Shown here in pieces: positions 2,764 through 64,000 of a stretch of 64,000 nt of DNA. The position numbers and the translations under genes are program-made. How positions within the stretch are numbered: position 1 is the stretch's first letter; each line of letters begins with the position of its first letter. The stretch spans positions 1 through 64,000 of the forward strand of contig CACFOQ010000006.1 of NCBI GenBank assembly GCA_902567855.1, given 5' to 3'. Source of the DNA: an uncultured Alphaproteobacteria bacterium (GTDB lineage: Bacteria; Pseudomonadota; Alphaproteobacteria; HIMB59; GCA-002718135). The notes under the pieces were generated by a model. The model was not told the origin of the DNA and made no database searches. It saw only the letters and a list, made by a program, of their open reading frames with translations.

Positions 2764-3501
2764 TTATTTTTCTTTTTCTTCATCAATTTTTTCTTTTTGA
2801 ATATTTTTAGATAATTCCCTTGCATCAGATAATGTAGCTTTAAAATAATTTGCATATAAATTAATAGATCTTATGGCATCATCATTACCAGGGATAATGT
2901 AATCTATTGGTTCAGGATCTGAATTAGTATCAGCAATTGCTATAATGGGAATACCAAGTTTTTTAGCTTCTAATACTGCTAATTTGTCTTTAACAGTATC
3001 AAAGATAACTAGTAAATCTGGCATTCCAGATAAATTTCTTATACCGCCAATATTTGAAAGTAATTTATCTCTTTCTCTGGATAAATCTAACAATTCTTTT
3101 TTTGAAAGATTACTTGAAATTTTTTCATCTCCCAAAGTACTCTCTAATTCATTCAAACGATTTATCGAATTAGAAATAGTTTTCCAATTAGTTAATGTGC
3201 CACCTAACCATCTTTTATTAATATAAAACTGGTCATTTTCTGTTGCAAGTTCTTTAACAATCAAAGAGCATTGTTTTTTTGTTCCTACAAAAAGCACTTT
3301 TCCTGATTTAGAAATAACATCATGAAGTTTTTCAAGTGCTTTATTTATTAAAGGTGCAGTAAGTCTTAAATCAAATATATGTATATTATTTCGTACTCCA
3401 AAAATGTACTCTTCCATTTTTGGATTCCATCTTCTAACATTGTGCCCAAAATGAACACCAGACTCTAACAATTCTTCTATAGTAATTTCAGGAAGATTCA
3501 T
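2764..3501 (-). CDS. rpsB: 30S ribosomal protein S2
   Basis: [25 protein letters not shown] motif. Confidence 0.97.
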
Positions 3502-10325: not shown

Positions 10326-12014
10326 TTATAACCTTATTATATGAGATTTTACATCTGGTTTTTTAAATAATTGAGATTTTAAAGATTGCCTTATTAACTT
10401 TTTAAGCAAATTTGAAACAATTTCATTAGAATTTTTTTGGTTATCACTAATCTTTGTATATTCTTGAACTAATAATTCTTTAAAATCATTTTCTAGTAAT
10501 CTTTCATCATAATCAGGAAGTCCTTTTGAAGTAATCATTATTTTATTATTTATTGATAAATCTGCATTAATAATAATTGAAATCAAAATCATTCCTTCGA
10601 AAGAAATTTTTCTTCTATCTTTAATAAAATTTGATTCAGAATCATACAAATTTTTTCCTTCAACAATTAATTTACCAGTATTTAAAAATCCACAAATCTT
10701 GGGGTTTTCTGGTGCTAGCTTAATACATTTACCGTTATCTAATATTCTAGTTATTGGAACTTGGCTAGCTTGTGCTAGTTGAGAATGAGCAAATAAATGC
10801 TTTGCCTCACCGTGTACTGGTATAGATATATAAGGGCGAGTCCATTGATACATTTTTTTTATTTCTTCAGCATATCCATGACCTGAAACATGTACTAGAT
10901 CATCATCTGCTGTAATCACTTCAACATTTTGTGCATAAAGTAAATTTTTTAAATTATTTATAGCTTTTTCATTACCAGGGATATCTTTGGAGCTAAATAT
11001 TACAAGATCATTTTCTTCTAAATATATATTGTTATGAGAATTATATGCTATTCTAAATAAAGCAGATCTTTTTTCTCCTTGGCTACCTGTACATATTACT
11101 ACTAAATTTTCTTTTGGAATTAAAGAGGCTTCGTCTTCAGTAATAAAAGAGATATCTTTATCAATAATATTATTTTCAATTGCTGCTGTTATAGTTTTTT
11201 TCATACTTCTTCCAACTAAAGCAACTTTTCTATTATTTTTTTTTGCAGCGATAAATATACTTTCCATTCTTTCAATATTAGATGAAAAACATGTTATAAC
11301 AATTCGATTATTGTATCTTGAGAAAATTTTAATTAATTCTTCTCTAACTTCTGATTCGGATTTTGAATAACCAGGTACATCAGCATTAGTTGAATCACCA
11401 ATTAAAGCAAGCAATCCTTCATTACCAATTTTTTCAAATTGTTCTTGATTTATTTGAGCGCCTATTGCTGAATTAAAATCTATTTTCCAATCTGCTGTAT
11501 GAAGTAAATTACCATATTTAGTTTTAATTAAAATTGCATGTGGCTCAGGTATTGAGTGTGAAGTAGAAATAAAACTTAAATTAAAATTATTTAATTTAAT
11601 ATCTTTATCATTTTCTATGGTTATAATATTAATTTTATCTAAAAAGCCAAATTCTTTTAATCTATTTTCAATTAATGATCTTGCAAAACCAGTTGCATAA
11701 ACTGGGCAATCGATCTTATCAGCAAAATAAGCTACTGCTCCTGAATGATCTTCATGACCATGACTAATGATTATGGCTTCTAATTTTTGAGAAATAGATT
11801 CGATAAAATCAATTTTTGGTAATAATAAATCTATTCCTGGAAATTTTTCATCTGCAAAAGATAAACCTAAATCAATCATAATCCATTTATCATCGCAGCA
11901 ATATAAATAGCAATTTGCACCTATCTCACCTATTCCCCCTAAAGATAAAAAATAAATTCCTTCTGAAGAGATATTTAGAGAATTTTGATTTTCAATCATG
12001 ATTTTGTAAGCCAA
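10326..12014 (-). CDS. rnj: Ribonuclease J
   Basis: Metallo-beta-lactamase motif SHGHEDHSG; LGGIGEIGANCYLY; HVSGHGYAEE; ~560 aa. Confidence 0.92.
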   Translation of the reverse strand: MAYKIMIENQNSLNISSEGIYFLSLGGIGEIGANCYLYCCDDKWIMIDLGLSFADEKFPGIDLLLPKIDFIESISQKLEAIIISHGHEDHSGAVAYFADKIDCPVYATGFARSLIENRLKEFGFLDKINIITIENDKDIKLNNFNLSFISTSHSIPEPHAILIKTKYGNLLHTADWKIDFNSAIGAQINQEQFEKIGNEGLLALIGDSTNADVPGYSKSESEVREELIKIFSRYNNRIVITCFSSNIERMESIFIAAKKNNRKVALVGRSMKKTITAAIENNIIDKDISFITEDEASLIPKENLVVICTGSQGEKRSALFRIAYNSHNNIYLEENDLVIFSSKDIPGNEKAINNLKNLLYAQNVEVITADDDLVHVSGHGYAEEIKKMYQWTRPYISIPVHGEAKHLFAHSQLAQASQVPITRILDNGKCIKLAPENPKICGFLNTGKLIVEGKNLYDSESNFIKDRRKISFEGMILISIIINADLSINNKIMITSKGLPDYDERLLENDFKELLVQEYTKISDNQKNSNEIVSNLLKKLIRQSLKSQLFKKPDVKSHIIRL

Positions 12015-49191: not shown

Positions 49192-50355
49192 TTATTCAAA
49201 AAAATACATATATCCATATGCAACTAATATAGCTGGTATGGCACTATACAACGTAGCAATTATTGCAGCTTTAGGAGCTAGCGCTATAGCTGGGAAAAGG
49301 GCATCTCCATCATTTGAAATTGCATTTCCGATTTCTGCTGAAAAAGGTATAAATCCATTAAGATAAAAAGTTGCAACAACAACTTGAGGGCCACAACCAG
49401 GAAGAAAGCCAAACAAAATTGCAATTAATGGAACAAATGGGAGCCAAATATTAAAAAAAACTTTTAAATCTATTGAGGAAAAAAACATAAAAATTTCAAA
49501 AACTAAAAAACCACAAATTACCCAAGTTGAAACAAAATTTGTTGTATCAACTACTCTTGATAATAAACCTCTTGATTTATCAGTTGAGCATTGAAAATCA
49601 CTTAGAGGATTTAATGACCACATAAAAATTGATAAAATTGCACCAGCTGAGCCAATTATTGGTAATAAACTTATTTTATCTGATATAATTAAATATTCAG
49701 AAATATTGATTTGAAAAGCAACTAAAATTCCCACTATGAAACCTGGTAAAAAAATAGCCAGCCAAATAAAATTAAATTTAGAAACAAATGTTTTATCTAA
49801 TTTTTCAGAAATTTTAATTTTAGAAGTAGGATTAATTAAATAATTAGAACCATGGATAATATCTATAATATAACCACTTATAATTCCTACTATAGCACCA
49901 ATAACAAATATCAAAATACCAGTGCTTGGTTCGATGGCCAATATTAAAAATGCAGCATCCCCCATTGTTGCAGTTAAAACTGCTACTAAAGAACCAAAAC
50001 CTATTCTTCCTTGAATATATTGTGTAACAACAATAATTGCACCGCCGCATCCTGGTAGAGCACCAAGAATAGCAGCAATTGGAACATGAATTTTTTTAGT
50101 TTTAATTAGAAATGAGGCAATATCAAATTTTGTTAAACTATCTAAGCCTATAAAAATAAATAATGTAAAACCTACAAAAACTGAAACTTGTAAATAAGCA
50201 TCAGTCATTGATTCTCTGATTATAATACCAAATTCACCAGGTTGAAAAGCACATGCTAAAATTATTAATCCAAAAAAAGATTTTTTTAATAATCTACCAT
50301 CATTTGCTAAAGCAATATTACCTCTATCTTTAATGGCATTAAAAAGTGCATTCAT
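49192..50355 (-). CDS. Putative manganese transporter (ArsP_2-like polytopic permease)
   Basis: Polytopic; PIAAILGALPGCGGAIIVVTQYIQG and LPGCGPQVVVATFYLNG repeats; divergent from an MntR-like regulator. Confidence 0.75.
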   Translation of the reverse strand: MNALFNAIKDRGNIALANDGRLLKKSFFGLIILACAFQPGEFGIIIRESMTDAYLQVSVFVGFTLFIFIGLDSLTKFDIASFLIKTKKIHVPIAAILGALPGCGGAIIVVTQYIQGRIGFGSLVAVLTATMGDAAFLILAIEPSTGILIFVIGAIVGIISGYIIDIIHGSNYLINPTSKIKISEKLDKTFVSKFNFIWLAIFLPGFIVGILVAFQINISEYLIISDKISLLPIIGSAGAILSIFMWSLNPLSDFQCSTDKSRGLLSRVVDTTNFVSTWVICGFLVFEIFMFFSSIDLKVFFNIWLPFVPLIAILFGFLPGCGPQVVVATFYLNGFIPFSAEIGNAISNDGDALFPAIALAPKAAIIATLYSAIPAILVAYGYMYFFE

Positions 50356-50391
50356 ATAAATTCCTCAATTAATATACATATATAGCTAATA

Positions 50392-50411
50392 TTTATAGCT
50401 ATGGCTATATT
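50392..50411. promoter_or_regulatory. Candidate MntR operator
   Basis: ATAGC-TATG-GCTAT inverted repeat (50395-50408) in the divergent spacer; same half-sites and spacing as the E. coli MntR box core ATAGCAAAGGCTAT. Confidence 0.65.
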
Positions 50412-50453
50412 TATTCTTAATGAAAAAATATCAAAAATAAGGTATTAAAAAGC

Positions 50454-50849
50454 ATGTCTTTTACAAAAGTAAGAAATGCACATAAAACTGAGAATACAGA
50501 GGATTACCTTGAACTCATAGCCGAATTATTAAATAGAAATGGAGAAGCTCGTATTGTTGATATAGCTAATGCTCTGGATATTGCCCAGGCCACTGCTAAT
50601 AAGACGATTAAAAGACTTCATTCACAAGGTTTTATAAAAAAAGAACCTTACAGGTCTATATTTCTTACAGTTAAGGGTCAAAAGATAGCAAGTATATCAA
50701 AAAAAAGACATAACATAGTTTACAATTTTTTGATAAATCTTGGTTTAGATCAAAAAGTAGCTGCAGCCGATGCTGAAGGGATTGAGCATCATGTTAGTAA
50801 TAAAACATTGATGAAAATGCAAAAGTTTAACAAAATTAAAAATTTATAA
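50454..50849 (+). CDS. mntR: DtxR-family manganese-responsive regulator MntR
   Basis: TEDYLELIAELLNRNGEARIVDIANALDIAQATANKTIKRL; DAEGIEHHVSNKTL. Confidence 0.88.
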   Translation: MSFTKVRNAHKTENTEDYLELIAELLNRNGEARIVDIANALDIAQATANKTIKRLHSQGFIKKEPYRSIFLTVKGQKIASISKKRHNIVYNFLINLGLDQKVAAADAEGIEHHVSNKTLMKMQKFNKIKNL

Positions 50850-50860
50850 TTAATAAATAA

Positions 50861-50898
50861 AAAAAGAAGGGATAACGGCGTCTTACCCCTTCTTTTTA
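50861..50898 (+). terminator. Intrinsic terminator downstream of mntR
   Basis: AAAAAGAAGGG ... CCCCTTCTTTTT. Confidence 0.75.
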
Positions 50899-50976
50899 AA
50901 ATGGTTTAGGATAGAAGATAAACCAAGTGAATAATATCCGATTCTCTATTTTTAAACAAATTTATAAAAAAGTTTA

Positions 50977-51600
50977 TTAAATCTTTTTTAATAATCCTAT
51001 CTTAATTTTAATTTTATTATTAAAATCTTTGTTTTTAGGCAAATATAGCAATTTTCTTGATATAAATATATTTTGCCATTTATTAGATAAATCACTTAAA
51101 ATTTTATCAAAATTTTGTTTCTGCCATAAATCTACTCTATGAGAAAATATAAAAAATCCTGATTTTTTAGTTATATTACTAACTTTTAGTAATAATTTTT
51201 GAGGATTGTTATTATACGTGAGTGAACCAATGCATGTAATGAGATTATATTTTTTCTTAAAAATAAAATTCTTGTTAAAATCACTAACAAATAACCTTTT
51301 GTATACTTTCTTTAATTTAGCATGAGATAAAGATTTTGTTGAAATATCTGCGCCATCAATAGATGATTTTGGATAAATTTTTTTTAATTCTTTACCAAAT
51401 AAACCAGTTCCACATGCTAAATCTAATATTTCATTTGGATTTTTATTGAGGAATTTTTTTAGAATTTTAGAGGAAGATTTTGGTGCATGATAATTCCATT
51501 GATTTAAAACTTTATCATAATCTTTAGACCATTCATCATAATATTTTTTCGTTTTAACACTAGTTCCAATTCCATTAATAAGAGCGTTATATTTAATCAT
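50977..51600 (-). CDS. Class I SAM-dependent methyltransferase
   Basis: ILDLACGTGLFGKELKK motif I; overlaps the upstream hydrolase gene. Confidence 0.8.
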   Translation of the reverse strand: MIKYNALINGIGTSVKTKKYYDEWSKDYDKVLNQWNYHAPKSSSKILKKFLNKNPNEILDLACGTGLFGKELKKIYPKSSIDGADISTKSLSHAKLKKVYKRLFVSDFNKNFIFKKKYNLITCIGSLTYNNNPQKLLLKVSNITKKSGFFIFSHRVDLWQKQNFDKILSDLSNKWQNIFISRKLLYLPKNKDFNNKIKIKIGLLKKI

Positions 51601-52399
51601 TATAAATTGATGGAACTCTTTTTCTAACTCTATTAATTTCTTTTAAATCAATAGTCGTATTAATAATCTTAGTTTTTGATAAAGCATGATTTAATTTGAT
51701 CCCCCAAGGATTAAATATAATAGAGTTACCATAAGTTTTTCTACCAGAATGATGTGAACCACACATGTTTGTAGCAACAATATAAACAGAATTCTCAATA
51801 GCTCTTGCTCTTACTAAAGTATTCCAATGGGCCTCACCTGTAGGAACAGTAAATGCAGCAGGTATTAATATGATTTCAGCACCTTTTTTAGCAAGATATC
51901 TATATAAATCAGGAAATCTTAGATCATAACAAATAGTCAATCCTATTTTGACATTTTTAATTTTACTCAAAACTTTTCTTTTCCCTTTAATAAAAAAATG
52001 AGATTCTCTATGTGTTTCTCTAGAACTAATATTTACATCAAACAAATGTATTTTATCATAGGTAGATTTAATTTTTCCATTATTATCAATTAATATTGAT
52101 CGATTAACTAACTTTTTATTTTCTTTTAACTTAAGTAATAAAGAGCCAATATTAATAAAAACTTTATTTTGCTTAGCAAAAATTTTGGCTTTTTTGATAA
52201 TTGGACAATTATATTGGTAAGTAGAATTATTTATTAAATACTTTTTATCATGAGTTATAATATTGCTACATTCAGGAGTGCAAATTAAATCAGGTTTAAA
52301 TTTTAAAGTTTTTTGAAAAAGTTTTTCCAATAAAAATGCATTTTCTAATGGCGTATCTTTAGCTTCGAATTGTATTTGTGATATTTTAAACTTATTCAT
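51593..52399 (-). CDS. Carbon-nitrogen hydrolase (nitrilase superfamily)
   Basis: CTPECSN; YDKIHLFD; GLTICYDLRFPDLYRYLAKKGAEIILIPAAF (Glu-Lys-Cys triad). Confidence 0.88.
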   Translation of the reverse strand: MNKFKISQIQFEAKDTPLENAFLLEKLFQKTLKFKPDLICTPECSNIITHDKKYLINNSTYQYNCPIIKKAKIFAKQNKVFINIGSLLLKLKENKKLVNRSILIDNNGKIKSTYDKIHLFDVNISSRETHRESHFFIKGKRKVLSKIKNVKIGLTICYDLRFPDLYRYLAKKGAEIILIPAAFTVPTGEAHWNTLVRARAIENSVYIVATNMCGSHHSGRKTYGNSIIFNPWGIKLNHALSKTKIINTTIDLKEINRVRKRVPSIYND

Positions 52400-52422
52400 A
52401 TACTTAATAACATTTAAAAATC

Positions 52423-52587
52423 TTAACTATCTTTTCTAAAAAAGGGTATCAAAAAAATTATACATGCTACTAAAAAAAAAATACTACCGAACATACTCCA
52501 AAAATTTCCTAAGCTAGATATCAAGAACCCTATTGCCGAAACTATAAATAATATCCATCCAAGGATGTTAATTTGTCTATTATTCAT
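52423..52587 (-). CDS. Small membrane protein (54 aa, absent from the ORF track)
   Basis: Translation MNNRQINILGWILFIVSAIGFLISSLGNFWSMFGSIFFLVACIIFLIPFFRKDS; two predicted TM helices. Confidence 0.6.
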   Translation of the reverse strand: MNNRQINILGWILFIVSAIGFLISSLGNFWSMFGSIFFLVACIIFLIPFFRKDS

Positions 52588-52627
52588 AAATAATTAAATT
52601 AATATTATTTATAAAAATTCGCAAACA

Positions 52628-54439
52628 TTATTCATTTTTTTCTTCCAATTCTATTAAAAATAACCATCTTTCTTCTTTAATTGACAATATTTTTTTTAAT
52701 TCTAACATTTCATTGGTGATTTCATTAAATCTATTTGCATCACTCAGATATAAATTTGAATTTTTTAATTCTTTAGTAATATCATCAATTTTATTTTCAA
52801 CATCTTCAATCTCTTTTGGCAAATTTTCTAATTCATATTTATATTTAAAGGATAGTTTCTTATTATTTTTTGAAGAAACAACTTTATAATTATTTTTTTT
52901 CTTTGAGGTCGATTTAATTATTTTTTCATTTTGCTGACTTTTAAGAAAGTCACTGTATCCTCCAAGAAAAATGGAGACTTGCCCTTTTTCATCAAAATAT
53001 AATATTTTATTAACAGTTTGATCTAAAAAATCTCTATCATGAGATACAATAAGCAAAGTACCAGAATAATTTGATAACATTTCAGTTAATAAATCCATTG
53101 TTTCTAAATCTAAATCATTTGTAGGTTCATCAAGTATCAATCCTGTTTGAGGATTAGCAAGCACTTTTGCAAGAAGTAATCTATTTTGTTGACCACCAGA
53201 TAAAGTACTAATACTGTCAGTGGCTTTAGATGGATCAAACATAAAATCCTTTAAATAAGAGCACACATGTCTATCTTTACCTTGAACCTTTAAATAATCA
53301 CCTCCACTAGGCACTAATATTTTTTTTAGCGAATTATCAGTATTAAGATCATTGCGTAGTTGATCAAAATAAGAAAAATTCATATTCTTTTTTAATTTAA
53401 TTGTACCTTTTTGACTTTTAATTTCTCCCAACAAAGCCTTTAAAAATGTCGATTTGCCTGTTCCGTTCTTGCCAATAAGACCTATTCTATCTTTTTTATT
53501 AATTTTTAAATTAATATCTTTTAGAATTGTTTTTTTTGGAATTTCATAACCAACGCTTACTTTATGAAACTCAGCTATAAATTTAGAATTATCTAAGCCT
53601 GGAATAATTTTATTTATTTTAACAGTTTGAATAGCTTTACGATATGAAGATTCATCTTTTTCAAGCTGATCTTTTAATTCTTTAGCTCTTTCTAATCTTT
53701 TAACATTTCTTTTGACTCTAGCTTTGACACCTTTGTTGGCCCATTCAACTTCAATATTAACAAATTGTTTTCTATTTTTTAGTTCTCTTGCCTCTTGTTC
53801 AAACATTTCTTGCGACCATCGATCAAAATTTTTAAATCCTGATGGGCTTACTCTTAAATTTCCTCTATCTAACCAAAAAACTTTATTGGTAAAATTACTT
53901 AAAAAAGTTCTATCATGACTTACACAAATTATAGATCCTTTGAAGGTTTTTAAATAATTTTCTAACCAAATAATACATTCTAAATCTAGATGATTAGTAG
54001 GCTCATCTAACAATAGTATATCTGATTCATTAATTAGAGACTTAATTAATCCAACTCTTCTTTTTTGACCTCCTGATAAATTTTTAATAATATCTTTTTT
54101 ATTTAATTGTAAATTATTACAAAAAATATCTATTTTAAATGATTCTTCTTCATTATCTAAAATATTTAATAATTCTTTTTCAATTGAATAAGATTCCTCT
54201 AATTCAAATTTTTGACTAAAAAAACTTACCCGTATATTATTTAACTTCCAAACTTCGCCTTGATCTAAATCTTGTTGATCACTAATTATTCTCATAAGAG
54301 TTGATTTCCCAACTCCATTTTTTCCTATTAGTGCTATTAAATCTTTTCTATGTATATTAACATCAAGATTATCAAAAATTATTTTTTTGCCAAAACTAAC
54401 TGAAGTTTCTCTTAAAGAAAAAATTAAATCACTTGCCAT
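52628..54439 (-). CDS. uup: ABC-F family ATPase (Uup-like)
   Basis: Two Walker A sites (GKNGVGKST, GKNGTGKST), two signatures (LSGGQKRR, LSGGQQNR), C-terminal coiled coil. Confidence 0.85.
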   Translation of the reverse strand: MASDLIFSLRETSVSFGKKIIFDNLDVNIHRKDLIALIGKNGVGKSTLMRIISDQQDLDQGEVWKLNNIRVSFFSQKFELEESYSIEKELLNILDNEEESFKIDIFCNNLQLNKKDIIKNLSGGQKRRVGLIKSLINESDILLLDEPTNHLDLECIIWLENYLKTFKGSIICVSHDRTFLSNFTNKVFWLDRGNLRVSPSGFKNFDRWSQEMFEQEARELKNRKQFVNIEVEWANKGVKARVKRNVKRLERAKELKDQLEKDESSYRKAIQTVKINKIIPGLDNSKFIAEFHKVSVGYEIPKKTILKDINLKINKKDRIGLIGKNGTGKSTFLKALLGEIKSQKGTIKLKKNMNFSYFDQLRNDLNTDNSLKKILVPSGGDYLKVQGKDRHVCSYLKDFMFDPSKATDSISTLSGGQQNRLLLAKVLANPQTGLILDEPTNDLDLETMDLLTEMLSNYSGTLLIVSHDRDFLDQTVNKILYFDEKGQVSIFLGGYSDFLKSQQNEKIIKSTSKKKNNYKVVSSKNNKKLSFKYKYELENLPKEIEDVENKIDDITKELKNSNLYLSDANRFNEITNEMLELKKILSIKEERWLFLIELEEKNE

Positions 54440-54992
54440 TTTTTAAGTGCCAAATTTCAAACTCACAATTATTTAGAAAAAAATGAATTATTCTTGAAAT
54501 AAAAGTACCATGACAAATTACAGCAATAGTTTTTTCTTCTCTTTTTTTTATCCAATTTTTAAATTTTTCTACACGCATATCTAATTCATTTATAGTTTCA
54601 TGATTAATTTTTTTTTCGTTGATAGGAATATCATTGTTCCACCAATATTTATTGATATGTGAAAAATCATGATTGGGAAAATCTTTTTTTAATAAATAAG
54701 GCTGTCTACCTATATCACAAGAGTGTTCAAGATATTCTCTTATTAATGGCAAGATTATTGTATTGGAAATGGGTTTAGGAAATATGATATCAAACGTTTG
54801 CAAAGTTCGTGTCATAGGAGAGCAAACCATTAAATCAAAATTAATATTTTTTAGTTTCTCTTTAGCATTTAATGCTTGTTTTTCTCCCACTTTAGTTATT
54901 GGAGCATCATAATAATAAGTAGGATTATCTAAATCTGCAGCTATATTGGCTTCAGATTGAGCATGACGAATAAGGTAAATTTTTTTGGTCAT
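54429..54992 (-). CDS. Histidine phosphatase family protein
   Basis: YLIRHAQSEAN (RHG-type motif); ICHGTFISRI. Confidence 0.85.
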   Translation of the reverse strand: MTKKIYLIRHAQSEANIAADLDNPTYYYDAPITKVGEKQALNAKEKLKNINFDLMVCSPMTRTLQTFDIIFPKPISNTIILPLIREYLEHSCDIGRQPYLLKKDFPNHDFSHINKYWWNNDIPINEKKINHETINELDMRVEKFKNWIKKREEKTIAVICHGTFISRIIHFFLNNCEFEIWHLKNGK

Positions 54993-55127
54993 ATTTTATT
55001 TATCAGGAAAAATCAATTTTTTGGTAATATAATAGAATGCTTGTTAATGAAATAGCAAAAAAAAATTAAATAAATTATAATTAATATGTTAACTTAATTT
55101 GAACATTTTTTTGAGTATACTATTATT

Positions 55128-55631
55128 ATGACTAATATTTTTAAATTTGTAACTATTATAACTCTATTTTTTATTTATTCGTGCTCTAATACTTCACCTA
55201 CAATTGTTCAAAATACAGATGCCCAAAAAGTTACAGCTGTTGAATATGGTACTATCAAAACTTCTTTACCAGTTAAAATTAAAGGAGAGAGTGATTGGAT
55301 TGGTGCCACTGCTGGAGGATTAATTGGAGCTTTGCTTGGAGCGCATATTTGTGGAGAAGAAGAAGTTGCTGGAACTAAATGTCAAGATATTGGTATAGTT
55401 TTTGGGACTGTAGGCGGTGCTGCAGCTGGGTCAGTAATACAAGCTGCATTAGGAAACCATGATGGTTTTCAATATATTATTAATATTGATAGTTGTGGGG
55501 AAAGTACTTTGAGTTGTGAAAATAATCAGGATAAAGCTTTTGTACAAGGTGATAAAGATCCCCTTCCTAACAATCAAAGAGTAATTATTATTTATGGAAA
55601 CACTATAAGAATTATACCTTATGAAAATTAA
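55128..55631 (+). CDS. Lipoprotein with glycine-zipper domain
   Basis: Signal peptide with lipobox FIYSC; GATAGGLIGALLGAH ... GTVGGAAAGSVIQAALG. Confidence 0.65.
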   Translation: MTNIFKFVTIITLFFIYSCSNTSPTIVQNTDAQKVTAVEYGTIKTSLPVKIKGESDWIGATAGGLIGALLGAHICGEEEVAGTKCQDIGIVFGTVGGAAAGSVIQAALGNHDGFQYIINIDSCGESTLSCENNQDKAFVQGDKDPLPNNQRVIIIYGNTIRIIPYEN

Positions 55632-55666
55632 TTAAATCTAAAATTTTTGAAATCTATATAAATAAA

Positions 55667-56263
55667 TTAATTTAAATTTGACCATTTAATACAATCTTCA
55701 AGTCTATCATCTCCCCAAAAAACTTCATCGTTATAAATAAAAGTTGGACTACCAAAAATTTTTTTACTCTTCGCTATTTCAGTTTGATTTAAATATTTTT
55801 GATTTATATTTTCACTTTTTGCCAATTCTATAGTTTTAATAGGATCTAATTCTAGTTGATTTAGTATCTCAGTAACATTTGGTTCTAAAGCTGGCTCCAA
55901 GCTTTGCTGAAACCATCTTCGATAAGTTTTTTTAACATAAGGAATACCCCATTCTTGATCCATTCCTAGAACTGCAATTTTATTTGCTAAATCAAATTCT
56001 TTTAAAGGGTATGGTGCGGGAACTTTTGCTTCAAACCCATAAAATTTAGCTCTTCTTTCTATATCTCTCCACATGTAATCAGATTTATTTTTCTTTGGAG
56101 GCGGTGTAAAAGGAACATTTTCCATCTCAATCATTATTTGTCTTACGCTAAAAGGTTTCCAAATAAATTTAACATTGTGTTCTTTTTCAACAGAAAAAAT
56201 TCTCTCAACGGTTAAATAAGTATATGTACTTCCAATAGAAAACCAAAATTCAATTTCTTTCAT
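55667..56263 (-). CDS. 2-hydroxychromene-2-carboxylate isomerase / DsbA-family protein
   Basis: EFWFSIGSTYTYLT; WKPFSVRQIM; FGSPTFIYNDEVFWGDDRLE. Confidence 0.82.
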   Translation of the reverse strand: MKEIEFWFSIGSTYTYLTVERIFSVEKEHNVKFIWKPFSVRQIMIEMENVPFTPPPKKNKSDYMWRDIERRAKFYGFEAKVPAPYPLKEFDLANKIAVLGMDQEWGIPYVKKTYRRWFQQSLEPALEPNVTEILNQLELDPIKTIELAKSENINQKYLNQTEIAKSKKIFGSPTFIYNDEVFWGDDRLEDCIKWSNLN

Positions 56264-56292
56264 AATTTTAATTTAAAACAAAATTCAATTAT

Positions 56293-56694
56293 CTACAAAT
56301 ATTTTTTATTATTAAAAATAAATAATATTGTTAGCAATGAACAAAAAGAGAAGATTGATGCGTTAATAGATATTGTAAAAAGATCTGTCTCACCTGGACT
56401 ATCAGTTAATATATATCTCCAAAAATTTAATGAAATAATTAATTGTATAAGCAATATTGTTATAAATAATGGTAGTTGATTCTCTATTCCTTTATATAAA
56501 ATTATAATTAAACCTATTGATAATGAGAGAAAAATAATACCTAATATTTCTGATAAACCTGCTATAGCATGGTTAAATGCACCAATATTCCTAAGAGCAA
56601 ATTCATCTGTAAAAACTAAAAGTTGAAAAGAATAATAAATAAAAAAAAGAATATTTATACTTAATATGAATAAATCAATTTTTTTAATCTTCAT
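56293..56694 (-). CDS. Small polytopic membrane protein, function unknown
   Basis: 133 aa with about four hydrophobic segments. Confidence 0.55.
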   Translation of the reverse strand: MKIKKIDLFILSINILFFIYYSFQLLVFTDEFALRNIGAFNHAIAGLSEILGIIFLSLSIGLIIILYKGIENQLPLFITILLIQLIISLNFWRYILTDSPGETDLFTISINASIFSFCSLLTILFIFNNKKYL

Positions 56695-56729
56695 GGTTTT
56701 ATCATATATTATATGATATTTAGTTAGTA

Positions 56730-57746
56730 ATGAATTTAAAAAAGTTTAAGCGATATCCATTAACTTTTGGAGTAACACCAATAGAGCATTTACCGAGACT
56801 TTCTAGAGAATTACAAGGTAATTTAGAAATTTATGCAAAGCGAGATGACTGTAATTCAGGTTTAGCTTTTGGAGGAAACAAACTAAGAAAACTTGAATAT
56901 ATTGTTCCTGATGCAATTGATTCTGGTGCTGATACCTTAGTTTCAATTGGTGGCGTTCAATCCAACCATACTAGAATGGTTGCAGCAACAGCTGCTAAAA
57001 TAGGAATGAAATGCAGACTTGTTCAGGAAAAGTGGGTTCCACATTATGATGGAGTATATGATCGAGTTGGTAACATACTTTTAACTCGTTTAATGGGCGC
57101 TGATAGCCGATTAGTTAATGATGGTTTTGATATAGGTATTAGAAAAAGTTATGAAGAAGCTATTCAAGCTGTAAAAGATGAAGGTGGAAAACCTTACGGT
57201 ATTCCAGCTGGAGCATCAGTTCATAAATATGGTGGACTTGGTTATGTAGGCTTTGCTGAAGAAGTAAAAGAGCAAGAAAAGGAATTAGGATTTAAATTTG
57301 ATTACATTATTGTGTGTGTAGTAACAGGATCTACTCATGCTGGGATGATTGTGGGTTTTGCAGATGATAATAGAGCTGACCGTGTCATAGGAATAGATGC
57401 TTCGGCAACTTATGAGCAAACAAGATCTCAAGTTAAACAAATTGTTTCTAATACCGCTAAACTAGTTGAGCTTGGAAGAGAAATTAAGGATGATGAAATA
57501 ATTATAAATCCTGATTATGCTTACCCATCTTATGGAGTACCAAGTGAAGAAACTAATGATGCAATTCGGTTAGCAGCTAAAACAGAAGGAATGATAACTG
57601 ACCCAGTTTATGAAGGAAAATCAATGCAAGGCTTAATTGATCTCGCTAAAAAGAAATTTTTTCCTGATGGATCTAAAATTTTATATGCTCATCTAGGTGG
57701 AGCTCCAGCTATAAATGGATATAGTTATTATTATAAGGATGGTTAA
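56730..57746 (+). CDS. acdS: 1-aminocyclopropane-1-carboxylate deaminase
   Basis: 338 aa; [12 protein letters not shown] lysine; Glu295 ([11 protein letters not shown]) and Leu322 (YAHLGGAPA) at the AcdS-diagnostic positions. Confidence 0.92.
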
Positions 57747-57777
57747 AGATTGTTAATTTATCTATAAGATTAATTAA

Positions 57778-58260
57778 ATGACAGATACTCTCCCCCAAAT
57801 AAGAAAGTTTTTAGAAAGTACAAATATAGAATTTGAAATAATGGACTGTGATCCTAATATGGCGGACACCCAAGTATTTTGTAAAGAATATAATATTAAA
57901 CTTGAAGACTCAGTTAATGCCATTATTGTAAAAACTAAAACAGGTGAATTAAAATATGTTACTTGCGCATTGTTAGCTACAAATAGATTAAATATAAATA
58001 ATGTGATCAGAAAAAAATTAGAAGCAAGAAAGGTTTCTTTTGCTAATGCTGCTGAAACTATTAAATTAACAAATATGGAAATAGGAGGTGTTACTCCATT
58101 TACTTTACCAGATAATTTACCAATATGGATTGACTCAAAAATAATGAATCGAGATTATGTAATATTAGGAGGAGGCAATCGCTCTTCAAAAATTAAAATT
58201 TCTCCCAAAATTTTTAATTTTACTAATAATACTGAAATAGTTGAAAATTTAGCCAATTAA
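57778..58260 (+). CDS. YbaK/EbsC-type aminoacyl-tRNA deacylase-like protein
   Basis: Central NAIIVKTKTGELKYVTCALLAT and GGVTPFTLPDNLPIWID; ILGGGNRSSKIKISP. Confidence 0.8.
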   Translation: MTDTLPQIRKFLESTNIEFEIMDCDPNMADTQVFCKEYNIKLEDSVNAIIVKTKTGELKYVTCALLATNRLNINNVIRKKLEARKVSFANAAETIKLTNMEIGGVTPFTLPDNLPIWIDSKIMNRDYVILGGGNRSSKIKISPKIFNFTNNTEIVENLAN

Positions 58261-58345
58261 ATTTCATCAAATATTTTGTGAATAATCTCATTGTTTTATT
58301 TTTTTTATAACAAATAATTTGTACACATGATATTTAGCTAATTGT

Positions 58346-58420
58346 GCCGCAGTAACTCAGGGGTAGAGTAATTCATTGGTAATGAATAAGCCGGCAGTTC
58401 GATTCTGCCCTGTGGCACCA
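58346..58420 (+). tRNA. tRNA-Thr(GGT), CCA encoded
   Basis: GCCGCAGTAACTCAGGGGTAGAGTAATTCATTGGTAATGAATAAGCCGGCAGTTCGATTCTGCCCTGTGGCACCA; ATTCA-TTGGTAA-TGAAT anticodon arm. Confidence 0.96.
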
Positions 58421-58425
58421 TTAAT
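58375..58425 (+). repeat. att-like direct repeat, copy 0 (inside tRNA-Thr 3' half)
   Basis: ATTGGTAATGAATAAGCCGGCAGTTCGATTCTGCCCTGTGGCACCATTAAT, identical to 61012-61062. Confidence 0.9.
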
Positions 58426-58428
58426 TAA

Positions 58429-58463
58429 CCACTTGTACTTAAAACAAAAGTGGGCATTTTTTT
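58429..58463 (+). terminator. tRNA-Thr terminator A
   Basis: CCACTT ... AAGTGG then GCATTTTTTT; near-copy at 60923-60957. Confidence 0.7.
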
Positions 58464-58541
58464 GTCATTTAGATAAATATTGTCAGATTTGTATTAGATT
58501 CTTACTACTAATTGTAGTTTGATTAAATAATATAAATTTTA

Positions 58542-59252
58542 TTAATGAAACTTTTCTAAAATATATTCGTTTATATTAACTTCCCAAAATGCAGTTGCTA
58601 AAGCATTATTTTTATAACCATCACCAAAACTTAAACTCTTTAATGTAGGATCTGAATTAAGAAACTCTTTTGCTTTTCTCATGTCATTATCGTTGTCCCA
58701 TTTATCCTTATTATTATCTTCAAGAATATCTAAAAGTTTATTTCCTAAAAACTGTCCCTTTTGAGATTGATTTGTAGGATTTTTTGCATAAAAGATAAAT
58801 TCTTCATTAAGCTTAAATCCTAATTCAGGACATAAATTATAATATATCAACTGAACAGCTAAGCCTTTGTCTAACTGCGTTGCTTTTTGAGTAAATGGCT
58901 TTAACCACCAACTAATTAACGTGCCATTAAAACCTGCAATTAACTCATCTCTCCAAATTGTGTTTGAAAACTTGCTACCTAAAGAGTCTTTAACTGGATT
59001 GTATAATGATTCAATTAGTGCATAAACCATCATACTTCCAGCTTTTAATTCTTCAGGTATATTATCTAAATCTTTTTTAGTAAGCTCTCTATCATCATCT
59101 TTTTTTACTTCATCTGCAAATGTAGATGCAGCTTTTTTAAGTGCACTGCCATATTTCTTTGTTTCTTGTTTTATTTTTTCGCCTGATGGATTTTTTCCTT
59201 TGAAAAGTAAGTAGGCTAGTATGATTATTACAATGATTAAAAAAAATTCCAT
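58542..59252 (-). CDS. Hypothetical protein, N-terminal TM anchor
   Basis: 236 aa; starts MEFFLIIVIIILAYLLFKGKNP; last gene of the element 1 operon. Confidence 0.6.
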   Translation of the reverse strand: MEFFLIIVIIILAYLLFKGKNPSGEKIKQETKKYGSALKKAASTFADEVKKDDDRELTKKDLDNIPEELKAGSMMVYALIESLYNPVKDSLGSKFSNTIWRDELIAGFNGTLISWWLKPFTQKATQLDKGLAVQLIYYNLCPELGFKLNEEFIFYAKNPTNQSQKGQFLGNKLLDILEDNNKDKWDNDNDMRKAKEFLNSDPTLKSLSFGDGYKNNALATAFWEVNINEYILEKFH

Positions 59253-59255
59253 AAT

Positions 59256-60086
59256 TTAAGCGATTTTTATTTTTTTTAAATTTATCATAAACCATTCATA
59301 AATATCCTGAAATGATATTTTACCAAAATATTTTCTTGATATTAGTACAATCATAAAAGCGGTCATCAATTCAATCCACAAAGGTGCACTTAAAACATAC
59401 ATAATTCCAATAAAAAGGGAGGATGTAAAACTACCCTTCTTAAATCCAGAAATAAAAAAATTATAACCTTTTTTCTTTTTGTGAAGATTGTACGCTCTAG
59501 CCATTGTTACTAGAGAAGCTACAACAACAAATGGATTTCCCCCAATCAGTCCTGAAATTAAAAGACTTGAAGCCATTTCACCAAAAAGTTCCTTGTCTTT
59601 TTTGTTCCAATTGAACATGATTGCAAACATTCCAATTGTAGCTCCTATTAATTCTGCAAGATTGACAGTTTGAATATCGTAATACCAATTAGCAGGCACT
59701 CCAAAATGATTTTTTAAATAACTAGCTGTTTTATCGTAACCTTCCTTAGATGCTGTAAACAAAGGTAATCCTGCAGGTGTTTGCAAATCTTTAAACATTG
59801 AAAAAAAGTATGCTTTTAATTCTTCAGTTCTGGAATCATCTGGAAATGTATTCTTTACTTTTTCCCACATTTCATGAGGTGTATGACTTCCATCAAATAA
59901 TCTGTGTTTCCAAGAACCAATATTAGTAGCTATATAGTTACTATCTATTGCTTTATCGTAAGCTGTAGGAGAATCGTTAACTAATGTGCCTAACCATTTC
60001 TCAAATCCTTTATGAAAATCTGTAGCAATTAAATTATTATACCAAAGCGATGCATTGTTAATAATTTCAGATTTAATTTTTTTCAT
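59256..60086 (-). CDS. Hypothetical multi-pass membrane protein
   Basis: 276 aa; soluble N-terminal part then hydrophobic helices (LAELIGATIGMFAIMF, GSFTSSLFIGIMYVL). Confidence 0.6.
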   Translation of the reverse strand: MKKIKSEIINNASLWYNNLIATDFHKGFEKWLGTLVNDSPTAYDKAIDSNYIATNIGSWKHRLFDGSHTPHEMWEKVKNTFPDDSRTEELKAYFFSMFKDLQTPAGLPLFTASKEGYDKTASYLKNHFGVPANWYYDIQTVNLAELIGATIGMFAIMFNWNKKDKELFGEMASSLLISGLIGGNPFVVVASLVTMARAYNLHKKKKGYNFFISGFKKGSFTSSLFIGIMYVLSAPLWIELMTAFMIVLISRKYFGKISFQDIYEWFMINLKKIKIA

Positions 60087-60089
60087 TCG

Positions 60090-60188
60090 TTACATTCCCC
60101 AAAACAAAATTGTCACAAATATACAAAAAAGTCCAATAATGACTGAAATTCCAAACACACTAATAAAAAATTCAAATATATTTTTCAT
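60090..60188 (-). CDS. Hypothetical single-TM microprotein (32 aa)
   Basis: Translation MKNIFEFFISVFGISVIIGLFCIFVTILFWGM; overlaps the end of the upstream ORF and abuts the downstream one. Confidence 0.4.
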   Translation of the reverse strand: MKNIFEFFISVFGISVIIGLFCIFVTILFWGM

Positions 60189-60843
60189 TTATAAACTCTA
60201 ACTCTAACCAATCAGCTCTTTGCCCTCTACAAGAATCAGCGCCATGAGCACAACCTTCTGTTACGAAAGAAAAACTATCTTCATTAATTTTATAATATTT
60301 AATTGGATTAAAAAGACTTTTGCCAGGAAGAAAGGCATTTGTTACCTTTAGATAATTACCAGTATATTCAAAGACATAGTAAGAATTAAATCTTGCTACA
60401 AAAGTACCGCACATTTTTTCTTTAATATTTACAAGATAATAATTTTTATGTTGAACAATTGGCGTATGACCAAAGAACGTCCAAGAACACTTATCATTAA
60501 TTAAAAATTCCTTCCCTGTGCTTTGTAAATTTTTCATGCAAGTAATATTAAAGATTTTGTTGTCTTCTATGCAATCAAGATAAGCGTTGTTTAAATTAGC
60601 TTTTTCTACTGAATTAAATTCTCTGGCATTCTCAGCAAAAGTAATAAAATAGTGTATGTACATAAACAAATCATCACTAATTTTTTCACCGTAATGATCT
60701 AAAAAATCATATTCTATACTTTTGTAACCCTTTTTAATTGGTTTAAATTCATTATGATATGCATCATTCAAGGGAGTAACCATATAAAAAGCAATGAAAA
60801 GTAAAAATAAGAAGATCGGATATTTTATAATCCTAGACATCAA
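60172..60843 (-). CDS. Hypothetical membrane-anchored, Cys-containing exported protein
   Basis: 223 aa; N-terminal TM (IIKYPIFLFLLFIAFYMV), several Cys in the extracytoplasmic part. Confidence 0.6.
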   Translation of the reverse strand: MMSRIIKYPIFLFLLFIAFYMVTPLNDAYHNEFKPIKKGYKSIEYDFLDHYGEKISDDLFMYIHYFITFAENAREFNSVEKANLNNAYLDCIEDNKIFNITCMKNLQSTGKEFLINDKCSWTFFGHTPIVQHKNYYLVNIKEKMCGTFVARFNSYYVFEYTGNYLKVTNAFLPGKSLFNPIKYYKINEDSFSFVTEGCAHGADSCRGQRADWLELEFINEKYI

Positions 60844-60922
60844 TTATTTTTTTAAGAAAAAAATGTGGTAACTTTAAGAATTTTACAAAGATAATGCTGC
60901 TTCAGTAGCTTATTGATTATAA

Positions 60923-60957
60923 CCACTTATTTACAAAACAAAAGTGGGCATTTTTTT
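60923..60957 (+). terminator. Terminator B, duplicate of the tRNA-Thr terminator
   Basis: CCACTT ... AAGTGG + T7; the 28 bp AAAACAAAAGTGGGCATTTTTTTGTCAT is identical at 58441-58468 and 60935-60962. Confidence 0.65.
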
Positions 60958-61011
60958 GTCATATATTTTTAAGAATCTTAATTTTCCTAGACATTTTTTT
61001 CTTGTCATACT

Positions 61012-61062
61012 ATTGGTAATGAATAAGCCGGCAGTTCGATTCTGCCCTGTGGCACCATTAAT
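61012..61062 (+). repeat. att-like direct repeat, copy 1 (tRNA-Thr 3' fragment)
   Basis: 51/51 identical to 58375-58425; no 5' half of a tRNA in front. Confidence 0.9.
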
Positions 61063-61071
61063 CTTGAATAT

Positions 61072-61099
61072 AAATAGCACTCTAATTTGAGTGCTATTT
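61072..61099 (+). terminator. Hairpin/terminator after tRNA fragment 1
   Basis: AAATAGCACTC taattt GAGTGCTATTT followed by AATTTTT. Confidence 0.6.
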
Positions 61100-61110
61100 A
61101 ATTTTTATAA

Positions 61111-61512
61111 TTATAAATTAAAATACCTAATTAAAATTACAATCATTGGAATTAATGGTCTTATAGCATTTTTAATATGGTGATCATTACCATCATGAGT
61201 TGGTAAGATTTTCATAACTAATGAGATATTGTAAACAAAAGCTAAAACAGTGAATATAAATATAGCACCAAATATTTCATTAGCAGATGTTACTCCTGCT
61301 ATTTCAAACAATGCAAAAAAAGCCATCACAACACATCCAGTCATTAAAAAACCTAACGGTCTACCCATATAAGTTGCCTGAATATTATCAAACCCAAAAT
61401 TTTTGCTAGCAAAATTCTTATTAAATGCAAAATTTAATCCAAAAAAACCTCCGAATAAAATTAAAAATACATGGCACAAAAAGGGCACCATTCCCCCTGC
61501 AGTTTCAATCAT
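61111..61512 (-). CDS. Hypothetical polytopic membrane protein
   Basis: 133 aa, about four hydrophobic segments. Confidence 0.6.
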   Translation of the reverse strand: MIETAGGMVPFLCHVFLILFGGFFGLNFAFNKNFASKNFGFDNIQATYMGRPLGFLMTGCVVMAFFALFEIAGVTSANEIFGAIFIFTVLAFVYNISLVMKILPTHDGNDHHIKNAIRPLIPMIVILIRYFNL

Positions 61513-61640
61513 AAATTCTCCTATTATTATAATTAACTATATCATTTTAAATATGATTCTGATTAAAAGACAAGTGATTGAGCCTGACATTTGTGCAAAG
61601 GTAATTAAATTAGAATTCAAATACCAGACTTAGCAAGGGT

Positions 61641-61679
61641 TAAGCCGGCAGTTCGATTCTACCCTGTGGCACCATTAAT
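61641..61679 (+). repeat. att-like direct repeat, copy 2 (tRNA-Thr 3' fragment, 38/39)
   Basis: TAAGCCGGCAGTTCGATTCTACCCTGTGGCACCATTAAT; one G>A difference from copies 0 and 1. Confidence 0.88.
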
Positions 61680-61728
61680 ATTTCATATTGAAATATTTAA
61701 TTCATTAACTAGTTAGATATTAAATATT

Positions 61729-62226
61729 ATGAAGATTCTTATTTTTTTACTTTTTCTTATTCCTAATTTAGGATTTGCAGCTTCTATGAATCATATAGGT
61801 AAAAAAGGTGAATCTTCTGAGGTAGATAGAGTTATTGAAATAAAAATGTATGATAATTATTTTGAGCCAAATGTAATAAATATAAAAAAGGGTGAAACAA
61901 TTAAATTCTTAGTCAAAAATCTTGGATTACTTGTTCATGAATTTAATATAGCGACAAAAAAAATGCATTTAAACCATCAGCCTGAAATGATGGAAATGAT
62001 GGAAAACGAAATTTTACTAGGAGACAAAATTGATTATGAAAAGATGAAAGAAATTGCAAAAACTAATCATTCCATGGCTCACTCTCATTCAAATAGTGTT
62101 TTATTAGAACCAAATAAGAGTAGCGAAATAATATGGAAATTTAATACTGATCTTAATCTAGAAGCTGCTTGTAATGTACCTGGTCATTACGAAAGTGGTA
62201 TGATTTCTAAAATCAATATCAATTAA
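61729..62226 (+). CDS. Cupredoxin/plastocyanin-like copper-binding protein, exported
   Basis: Signal peptide; YFEPNVINIKKGETIKFLVKN; ligands HEF ... CNVPGHYESGM. Confidence 0.82.
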   Translation: MKILIFLLFLIPNLGFAASMNHIGKKGESSEVDRVIEIKMYDNYFEPNVINIKKGETIKFLVKNLGLLVHEFNIATKKMHLNHQPEMMEMMENEILLGDKIDYEKMKEIAKTNHSMAHSHSNSVLLEPNKSSEIIWKFNTDLNLEAACNVPGHYESGMISKININ

Positions 62227-62235
62227 AAAATTTTA

Positions 62236-63012
62236 TTAAATTGAACCAGCTTCAACCATATAATTATTTGCTGTACACATTGAAGCATCATCTGAAGCTA
62301 AGAATAAAACCATACGAGCAACATAAACAGGCTCTATAAGATCTGGTAGACATTGACGCTTTTGTTGATTTTCTAGAGCTTCAGGAGTAACCCATAATTT
62401 TTTTTGTCTATCGGTCATAATCCATCCTGGAACGACAGTATTAACTCGAATACGATGCTGACCTAGATCTCGTGCCATTGTTCTAGTTAATCCATGAACT
62501 GCTGATTTGGCAGTAGTATATGCTGGAAATCCACCGCCCGCCTCCCACCAAGAATTTGAACCTATATTGATAATTGATCCTCCACCTTTTTTTATCATTT
62601 CAGGAGCGACATGCTGAATAGCAAAAAATTGGTGACGAAGATTTGTTGACAATCTTTCATCCCAATAATCTTCTGTTACATCTTTCCAATCGTGACGATC
62701 ATCATTTGCTGCATTATTAATCAAAATATCAGCAGATCCTATCAGTTTCTTTAAGTTTTTCATCGATGTCTGCATAGCTGAAATATTAGTTAAATCACAT
62801 ATTTCAAAATGAACATTATCTCCCAATTTTTTTGCAAGTTTTTTACTAGCATCTAAATCCAAATCAAGAAAACCAACTTTCGAACCTTGTTTAGCAAACG
62901 CTGTTACAATCTCCGCTCCAATACCTAAAGCTCCACCCGTAACAAAAACAGTTTTTTCTAATAAACTTGGATAAACTGCAAAATTTTTTGACATTATATC
63001 CTCAATTATCAC
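62236..63012 (-). CDS. SDR family oxidoreductase
   Basis: VTGGALGIGAEI; NNAAND; YTTAKSAVHGLTR. Confidence 0.9.
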   Translation of the reverse strand: MIIEDIMSKNFAVYPSLLEKTVFVTGGALGIGAEIVTAFAKQGSKVGFLDLDLDASKKLAKKLGDNVHFEICDLTNISAMQTSMKNLKKLIGSADILINNAANDDRHDWKDVTEDYWDERLSTNLRHQFFAIQHVAPEMIKKGGGSIINIGSNSWWEAGGGFPAYTTAKSAVHGLTRTMARDLGQHRIRVNTVVPGWIMTDRQKKLWVTPEALENQQKRQCLPDLIEPVYVARMVLFLASDDASMCTANNYMVEAGSI

Positions 63013-63139
63013 AATGAAGTTAAAATTTAAATGGATTTATTTATTTAATTTTTTATTAATATTTTAATAAATTATAACTGTCCTCATAAGCGTCATAATT
63101 GAAAAGCAATTAAAAAAGTATAATATAAAATAAATTATA

Positions 63140-63829
63140 ATGTCAAATTTGTTATTTAAATTAAATTCATCAAGAATTTTTCAATTTATTGTTATTACAA
63201 TAATAATTTTAAATGCTATCACACTTGGAGTTAGCACATATGAATTGAATGCATACATTACAAATTCAATAAAAATACTTGATTATTTAATCACAATTTT
63301 TTTTGTTATTGAAATTTTAATTAGATTTATAGGTGAACCAAAAAAAATTAATTTTTTTAAGAATGGATGGAATATCTTCGACACTTTAATAGTTTTAGTA
63401 TCGCTAATTCCTATTCCAAACAATTCAAGTTTTCTGTTATTAAGATTATTAAGGGTATTTAGAGTATTAAGATTAATATCAGCTATTCCAGAATTAAAGA
63501 AAATAATTGAAGCTTTAATTGATTCTATAAAAAGAGTTTTTTATGTAGGATTATTGCTTTTTATTATACTTTATATTTATGCAACAATTGGATCTATGCT
63601 CTTTGCAAGTCATATTCCTGAAAGATGGAATGATGTTGGAGTATCATTAATTACCTTATTTCAAGTTTTAACCCTATCAAGCTGGGAAACTGTCATGCTT
63701 CCTTTGCAAGAAATATTTTGGTGGGCGTGGATCTATTTTTTTAGTTTTATTATTATTTGTGCCATCACAATGCTCAATCTTCTTATTGCTATTTTAGTTG
63801 ATGTTGTAATTAACCAAAAAAAACTTTAA
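63140..63829 (+). CDS. Voltage-gated ion channel (6TM, single-domain ion transporter)
   Basis: S4-like LLRLLRVFRVLRLI; pore FQVLTLSSWETVM; six hydrophobic segments. Confidence 0.85.
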   Translation: MSNLLFKLNSSRIFQFIVITIIILNAITLGVSTYELNAYITNSIKILDYLITIFFVIEILIRFIGEPKKINFFKNGWNIFDTLIVLVSLIPIPNNSSFLLLRLLRVFRVLRLISAIPELKKIIEALIDSIKRVFYVGLLLFIILYIYATIGSMLFASHIPERWNDVGVSLITLFQVLTLSSWETVMLPLQEIFWWAWIYFFSFIIICAITMLNLLIAILVDVVINQKKL

Positions 63830-63874
63830 TTAATTATTTTAAATTGAAATATAAAAAAAGGGAACTAACGGTCA

Positions 63875-64000
63875 TTATATTGACTCATAAGAATTATTTT
63901 TCTTATCCAATAATTTAAATTTTTTTTCATGTTTAGATTTTCTACCAGATACTCTTTTGCGCCAAATTTTAAAAGAACTGGGTTTCAGGTTCTTTCTCAT
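63875..64000 (-). CDS. Small basic protein, may be truncated by the window edge
   Basis: Reverse-strand translation MRKNLKPSSFKIWRKRVSGRKSKHEKKFKLLDKKNNSYESI; ATG falls at the last base of the window. Confidence 0.35.
   Translation of the reverse strand: MRKNLKPSSFKIWRKRVSGRKSKHEKKFKLLDKKNNSYESI

What the first reader, a model, noticed from the sequence alone, without database searches (positions are those of the whole stretch)
58346..61679. Nested integration locus: tRNA-Thr with two downstream copies of its 3' half
Sequence: 51 bp starting at the anticodon loop and running 5 bp past the CCA (58375-58425) recurs perfectly at 61012-61062. A 39-bp version with one mismatch lies at 61641-61679. 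Neither copy has a 5' tRNA half. This is the geometry left by site-specific integration into a tRNA 3' end, here two stacked events. Neither segment encodes a recognisable integrase, transposase or phage gene. Inference: small cargo islands mobilised in trans, comparable in logic to satellites or to the tRNA-targeting tycheposons of Prochlorococcus.
Basis: partly seen in the sequence, partly recalled or inferred. Interest (0 to 1): 0.75.

Follow-up and report, generated by a model that had tools for sequence, protein, structure and literature searches.

The report
Integrase-less tRNA-anchored gene cassettes
Downstream of a threonine tRNA gene in a streamlined ocean bacterium sits a 2.6-kb block of DNA that inserted precisely at the tRNA's anticodon loop without carrying its own recombinase; relatives show the empty site, other cargo and a recombinase-bearing cousin, so small gene cassettes are probably moved here by enzymes borrowed from other elements.

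Summary
A perfect 51-bp copy (61012-61062) and a 38/39-bp copy (61641-61679) of the tRNA-Thr(GGT) 3' half lie downstream of the gene, and neither segment encodes an integrase. Relatives settle most of it. A same-genus genome (G002) has the empty site for the 2637-bp segment, joined exactly at the repeat; a second (G003) has no extra copy. G110, of another genus, carries segment 61026-61578 at 99.5% identity, fused within 9 bp (ATTGGTAAT, the anticodon loop) to its own tRNA-Thr 3' half.

In the sister family, 11 of 42 genomes have further copies of the tRNA-Thr 3' half (234-6347 bp apart; one pair inverted). Only one interval (G139) has an integrase. Two integrase-less restriction-modification cassettes share its left end (87-91%) and its paired arm repeats. 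The window's 2637-bp unit has the same geometry: a 46-bp arm repeat about 50-95 bp from each crossover.

The outer 617-bp segment is older and its right flank is ancestral sequence. Trans-mobilisation is well supported but not shown experimentally. The kind is known (tRNA-repeat cassettes; cis-mobilizable elements); this is a very small, helper-linked variant.

The parts
58346..58420 (+). tRNA-Thr(GGT), the target gene; crossover in its anticodon loop TTGGTAA (58376-58382)
   Evidence: ARAGORN; crossover localised by the chimeric junction in G110
58375..58425 (+). att copy 1 (tRNA 3' half plus 5 bp)
   Evidence: 51/51 identical to 61012-61062
58426..58471 (+). left arm repeat of the 2637-bp unit, also hairpin-like with a T run
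   Evidence: 87% identical over 46 nt to 60920-60965
58542..59252 (-). cargo gene P1, 236 aa, N-terminal hydrophobic segment, unknown
   Evidence: no family; AlphaFold model too poor to use
59256..60086 (-). cargo gene P2, 276 aa, predicted membrane protein; relatives lie at tRNA-Gly, tRNA-Thr and tmRNA sites in other genomes
60172..60843 (-). cargo gene P3, 223 aa, N-terminal hydrophobic segment; a weak relative (27%) sits next to the P2 relative in G063
60920..60965 (+). right arm repeat of the 2637-bp unit
60981..61011 (+). right end (P-arm) next to the crossover; 31/31 identical next to the crossover in G110 behind a different gene
61012..61062 (+). att copy 2; right end of the 2637-bp unit and left end of the older 617-bp segment
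   Evidence: continuous with the tRNA in G002
61111..61512 (-). gene M, 133 aa membrane protein; found near tRNA-Thr in many relatives; 99.5% nt identical segment in G110 of another genus
61641..61679 (+). att copy 3, older and decaying (G to A breaks the T-stem pairing)

Best explanation
A non-autonomous integrative cassette of 2637 bp. A circular form carrying [right arm - anticodon-loop core - tRNA 3' half - left arm] recombined with tRNA-Thr(GGT) at the 7-bp anticodon loop TTGGTAA. The tRNA was rebuilt with the 3' half supplied by the cassette and the old 3' half was pushed downstream as copy 2. The cassette encodes no recombinase; a tyrosine integrase supplied by another element (a prophage or satellite of the kind seen in G139) cut and joined it, using the arm repeats kept at both ends. 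The cassette brought three genes for membrane or exported proteins of unknown function. The 617-bp segment downstream is the trace of an older event at the same site. Shown: the repeats, the precise empty site, the inter-genus junction, the shared ends of integrase-bearing and integrase-less elements. Inferred: the circular form, the helper, and that this unit is still mobile.
For: Empty site: G002 aligns 50001-58425 (96.8%) and 61012-64000 (98.4%), with the two parts overlapping by exactly the 51-bp repeat; G003 has one tRNA-Thr and no copy. Crossover: in G110 the M segment and the right end of the 2637-bp unit are fused at ATTGGTAAT to a diverged native tRNA-Thr 3' half. Recurrence: 11 of 42 genomes of the sister family with a match have two or three copies of the tRNA-Thr(GGT) 3' half; G061 has a 517-bp unit with a DUF4174 gene that is absent at the same place in relatives; tRNA-Gly(GCC) in G063 has two perfect extra copies around cargo with P2 and P3 relatives. 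Helper: G139 has an integrase-bearing unit at tRNA-Thr(GGT); integrase-less G136 and G148 share its left end (91% over 88 nt, 90% over 67 nt) and G126, G136 and G148 share their right ends at 95-97% over 200 nt with different restriction-modification cargo. Arm geometry: GGGTACAC pairs at +92/+104 and -92/-80 in G136 and G148, +92/+104 and -114/-103 in G139; the window's arm repeat is at about +51 to +96 and -92 to -47.
Against: No tRNA-Thr-specific integrase was found in this genome: its two tyrosine recombinases are one at the tRNA-Gly locus and one conserved chromosomal gene, and the genome is about 82% complete. The window's arm sequences do not match G139's; only the geometry does. No reads were available to see circles or junctions. 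The unit could be an immobile remnant.
Confidence: 0.77

Rival explanations
1. The unit is a dead remnant: it entered with its own integrase gene, which was later deleted. The att repeats are fossils.
For: G136 keeps a ribosome-binding site and start region resembling the G139 integrase start at the same place but has restriction-modification genes instead, so loss or replacement of an integrase does happen.
Against: In the window the two 51-bp copies are identical, the arms are kept at both ends and all three cargo frames are open, so the event is recent. Integrase-less units outnumber integrase-bearing ones about 15 to 1 at this tRNA, and several with different cargo share the same ends.
Confidence: 0.25
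2. Homologous recombination with imported DNA across the tRNA gene, with no site-specific recombinase, changed the gene content.
For: G003 differs by gene replacement upstream of the tRNA (no YbaK gene, a 73%-identical M relative, a drop in identity at the end of the neighbouring gene), which is typical of homologous replacement, so this also occurs here.
Against: Homologous recombination does not explain why every extra copy starts at the anticodon loop, the absence of 5' halves, or a G110 junction with only 9 bp of shared sequence.
Confidence: 0.1
3. The recombinase is host-encoded: the conserved chromosomal tyrosine recombinase (354 aa, C4) moves the cassettes, as Xer recombinases do for IMEX elements.
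For: An orthologous-looking gene with the same neighbours is present in G096, and a single hit of this size occurs in most genomes of the family.
Against: It is not linked to any tRNA, and tRNA-specific integrases sit beside the same kinds of tRNA target in integrase-bearing elements.
Confidence: 0.1
4. Assembly artefact across a repeat.
For: Contigs of G110 break at this repeat, and no reads were available.
Against: G002, G061 and G110 are separate assemblies with the same architecture; the 31-nt right end next to the core recurs in G110; the window contig is continuous for kilobases on both sides.
Confidence: 0.04

Closest known systems
Additive flexible genomic islands with tRNA direct repeats in streamlined aquatic bacteria ('Ca. 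Actinomarinales', PMC7771536; 'Ca. Methylopumilus' tRNA-Lys island, PMC10872708)
   Same: Small gene cassettes inserted at a tRNA gene, with part of the tRNA repeated at the far end of each cassette; transfer between genera; no integrase described with the cassettes
   Different: Here the crossover is placed within the anticodon loop, both ends carry arm repeats, units are as short as 234 bp, and integrase-bearing and integrase-less units share ends
Cis-mobilizable elements, including the integrase-less ssrA islands of Dehalococcoides (PMC3146451)
   Same: Tandem att-flanked islands at one RNA gene, some lacking the integration module, thought to be moved by neighbours or relatives
   Different: There a serine recombinase and the ssrA T-loop region; here tyrosine integrases and a tRNA anticodon loop, and far smaller units
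Tycheposons of Prochlorococcus (known here only through PMC10872708, PMC11389934 and general knowledge)
   Same: Cargo elements anchored at tRNA genes with tyrosine recombinases, in streamlined marine bacteria
   Different: Described there as 4-200 kbp with a recombinase; most units here are smaller and lack one. No sequence comparison with tycheposons was made
Integron gene cassettes and CALINs
   Same: Recombinase-less cassettes stacked at one site, newest nearest the anchor, dependent on an integrase in trans (PMC11389934 for CALINs)
   Different: No attC sites and no integron integrase; each unit carries a tRNA 3' half instead
Tyrosine-integrase prophages and satellites in tRNA genes (anticodon-loop class)
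   Same: Anticodon-loop crossover, rebuilt tRNA, arm repeats flanking the core, as in G139
   Different: The window unit has no integrase or phage gene

Membership tests
Site-specific integrative element at a tRNA gene | Direct repeat of the target 3' end at the distal boundary | tested here: met
Site-specific integrative element at a tRNA gene | Precise empty site in a close relative | tested here: met
   (G002)
Site-specific integrative element at a tRNA gene | Integrase encoded by the element | tested here: not met
Cis-mobilizable element (CIME) | att sites at both ends, no recombination module | tested here: met
Cis-mobilizable element (CIME) | Related autonomous element with compatible att sites | tested here: inconclusive
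   G139 uses the same tRNA and shares ends with integrase-less units of its family, but its arms do not match those of the window
Cis-mobilizable element (CIME) | Actual mobilisation by a helper | not testable with these tools
   needs an experiment or reads
Additive flexible genomic island with tRNA repeats | Cassettes at a tRNA, each ended by a tRNA fragment repeat, variable among close relatives | tested here: met
Tycheposon | tRNA anchor | tested here: met
Tycheposon | Tyrosine recombinase in the element | tested here: not met
Tycheposon | Sequence relation to described tycheposons | not tested
   no reference set at hand
Phage satellite | Phage-derived packaging or replication genes in the unit | tested here: not met
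   for the window; G139 has a Gp2.5-like SSB
Integron cassette | attC sites and an integron integrase | not tested
   no attC search was run; boundaries are tRNA halves

The most novel reading that the evidence does not exclude
A cassette system analogous to an integron, with a tRNA gene as the landing site: promoterless or self-expressed one-to-few-gene circles, some only 234-600 bp, each carrying a tRNA 3' half and arm repeats, are captured, stacked and exchanged across genera by integrases of resident phages or satellites, and cargo families such as P2 move between different tRNA targets.
Probability: 0.25. Interest if true: 0.75.

Novelty: new variant of a known kind. Interest (0 to 1): 0.52.

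Why it matters
Streamlined ocean bacteria have few recognised mobile elements, yet their accessory genes turn over. This locus offers a concrete mechanism: very small, integrase-less units that borrow an integrase at a tRNA gene. It comes with empty sites, shared ends and a candidate helper, so the mechanism can be tested directly. The published work on the HIMB59 order that was searched here does not describe tRNA-anchored cassettes; PMC10734472 notes the absence of tRNA genes at the boundaries of its phosphate island.

Tried and rejected
IMG/VR scans for the core, the right end and P2 were attempted nine times and never answered, so phage genomes carrying this attP were not surveyed there. 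The genome-contig scan with P2 peptides found none; the scan with the right-end motif found only G061's record and one unrelated hit. Phage DNA and protein searches were empty. AlphaFold models of P1 and P2 had mean pLDDT about 43 and were not used. PDB sequence search for P3 was empty. The shared motif TTTTCCTMGACA between G000 and G061 was considered as a common integrase arm but two sites are too few. The idea that the left flank of copy 3 is an attP arm was dropped once G070 showed it to be native sequence upstream of M. No integrase was found beside tRNA-Thr(GGT) in the 26 loci of the own family.

Full report
Observation. The three copies are real and at the stated coordinates. They are the only matches to the core in the genome. 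The first two are identical over 51 bp; the third is 38/39 and carries a G to A change in the T stem.

Identity of the organism. The window lies in an 82%-complete, 1.35-Mb assembly of 36 contigs. The order has two families in the held set. G061, which has a matching unit, has a contig of the same length (130,620 bases) as contig NODE_3 of the single-cell genome AG-915-C06, an uncultured alphaproteobacterium. Two families, low GC and 1.3-1.6 Mb genomes fit the order HIMB59 / AEGEAN-169 (PMC10734472, PMC10308909).

Empty site. In G002 the sequence runs from 58425 straight into 61012; the two alignments (96.8% and 98.4%) overlap by exactly the 51-bp repeat. G002 therefore lacks the 2637-bp unit but has the 617-bp segment. 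G003 has a single tRNA-Thr followed directly by the sequence that follows copy 3 in the window, and so lacks both, though its upstream side has been replaced by a different arrangement. The order of events is: copy 3 and the 617-bp segment first, the 2637-bp unit last and nearest to the tRNA.

Crossover point. Contig C6 of G110, another genus, begins within the tRNA-Thr 3' half, continues with the window's 61026-61578 at 99.5% identity, switches to 60981-61020 and then, after ATTGGTAAT, to the 3' half of G110's own diverged tRNA-Thr(GGT), whose intact gene lies at the end of contig C9. Only nine bases are shared at that switch, too few for assembly overlap or homologous recombination. They are the anticodon loop and its neighbours. 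Integrase-bearing elements at tRNA-Gly, -Arg, -Gln and -Leu genes in the same order also have repeats that begin at the anticodon loop.

Recurrence. In the sister family, 42 of the searched genomes match the tRNA-Thr(GGT) 3' half and 11 have two or three copies on one contig, 234 to 6347 bp apart, with one inverted pair. Some genomes are empty at the same neighbourhood (G129, G140, G151), one has a 234-bp unit without a gene (G156) and one a 1688-bp unit (G141). Cargo includes C5 methylases with a HaeIII-like endonuclease, a polysaccharide lyase and an esterase-like protein. In the own family, G061 has a 517-bp unit with one DUF4174 gene.

Helper and shared ends. Of the 12 units delimited by direct copies at tRNA-Thr(GGT) in the sister family, only that of G139 has an integrase; it also has a Gp2.5-like single-strand binding protein. 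Integrase-less G136 and G148 share its left end; G126, G136 and G148 share right ends at 95-97% over 200 nt although their cargo differs. The octamer GGGTACAC occurs twice at +92/+104 and twice at -92/-80 from the crossover in G136 and G148, and at +92/+104 and -114/-103 in G139. Such paired repeats either side of a core are what is expected of arm-type integrase sites (general knowledge of tyrosine integrases). The window's unit has its own 46-bp repeat at comparable distances. Integrase detection in the sister family used a small profile built from three local integrases, so a very divergent one could be missed.

What the 617-bp segment is. Gene M occurs near tRNA-Thr in many relatives. In G070 the sequence upstream of M matches the window up to a few bases before copy 3, without any copy. 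The right side of this segment is thus ancestral sequence and not a P-arm, and the event that left copy 3 is not reconstructed. That M can travel is shown by G110.

Cargo. P2 has relatives at 42-49% identity in four other genomes: beside tRNA-Gly in G063 with two nested tRNA repeats and a PLD-family gene, beside tRNA-Thr in G144, beside a tmRNA in G368, and on a short contig with DUF1376 and HNH-like genes in G124. P2 is therefore a gene family that recurs at RNA-gene integration sites. Its function is unknown; a membrane-associated defence or effector role is a guess from the company it keeps.

Own recombinases. G000 has a tyrosine recombinase at the tRNA-Gly locus (with a truncated or altered tRNA-Gly beside it) and a conserved chromosomal one. 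Neither is tied to tRNA-Thr. The helper that placed the 2637-bp unit is not identified.

Verdict. A precise, recent, integrase-less insertion at a tRNA anticodon loop is shown. That it was moved in trans is the best-supported inference. The kind of thing is known; the small size, the shared ends with a helper, and the spread across tRNA targets make it a useful variant.

Noticed in passing
L112 (G063:C3), 8266-8315, 8745-8795, 11551-11625: The same nested architecture at tRNA-Gly(GCC): two perfect 50-51 bp copies of the tRNA 3' half, cargo with P3 and P2 relatives and a PLD-like protein, then a 479-bp unit; no integrase.
   Followed up: partly
L163 (G156), about 2820-3060 of the reversed strand: A 234-bp tRNA-Thr unit with no gene, apparently little more than an attachment site; its ends match those of the larger units in G123 and G141.
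   Followed up: partly
L155, L157, L164 (cargo of G123, G131, G157): Different secreted proteins start with nearly the same signal peptide (MNKFVFLFFFIPTLSWGLTF... or MKTLLALLLLIPSL...), as if a common leader is joined to varying bodies.
   Followed up: no
L001 (G000:C3), 263-1420: A tyrosine integrase beside the 5' half of tRNA-Gly(GCC) followed by an altered 3' half that ARAGORN does not accept as a tRNA; the contig ends 262 bases beyond the integrase.
   Followed up: partly
L002/L065 (G000:C4), 9749-10807 of L065: A conserved chromosomal tyrosine recombinase (352 aa) with the same neighbours in G096; one hit of this size occurs in most genomes of the family, with no second Xer-like gene reported by the Pfam search.
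   Followed up: partly
L010 (G003) compared with window 57746-58345: The YbaK-like gene upstream of tRNA-Thr is absent in G003 and replaced by a diverged copy of gene M, which suggests homologous replacement on the upstream side of the same tRNA.
   Followed up: partly
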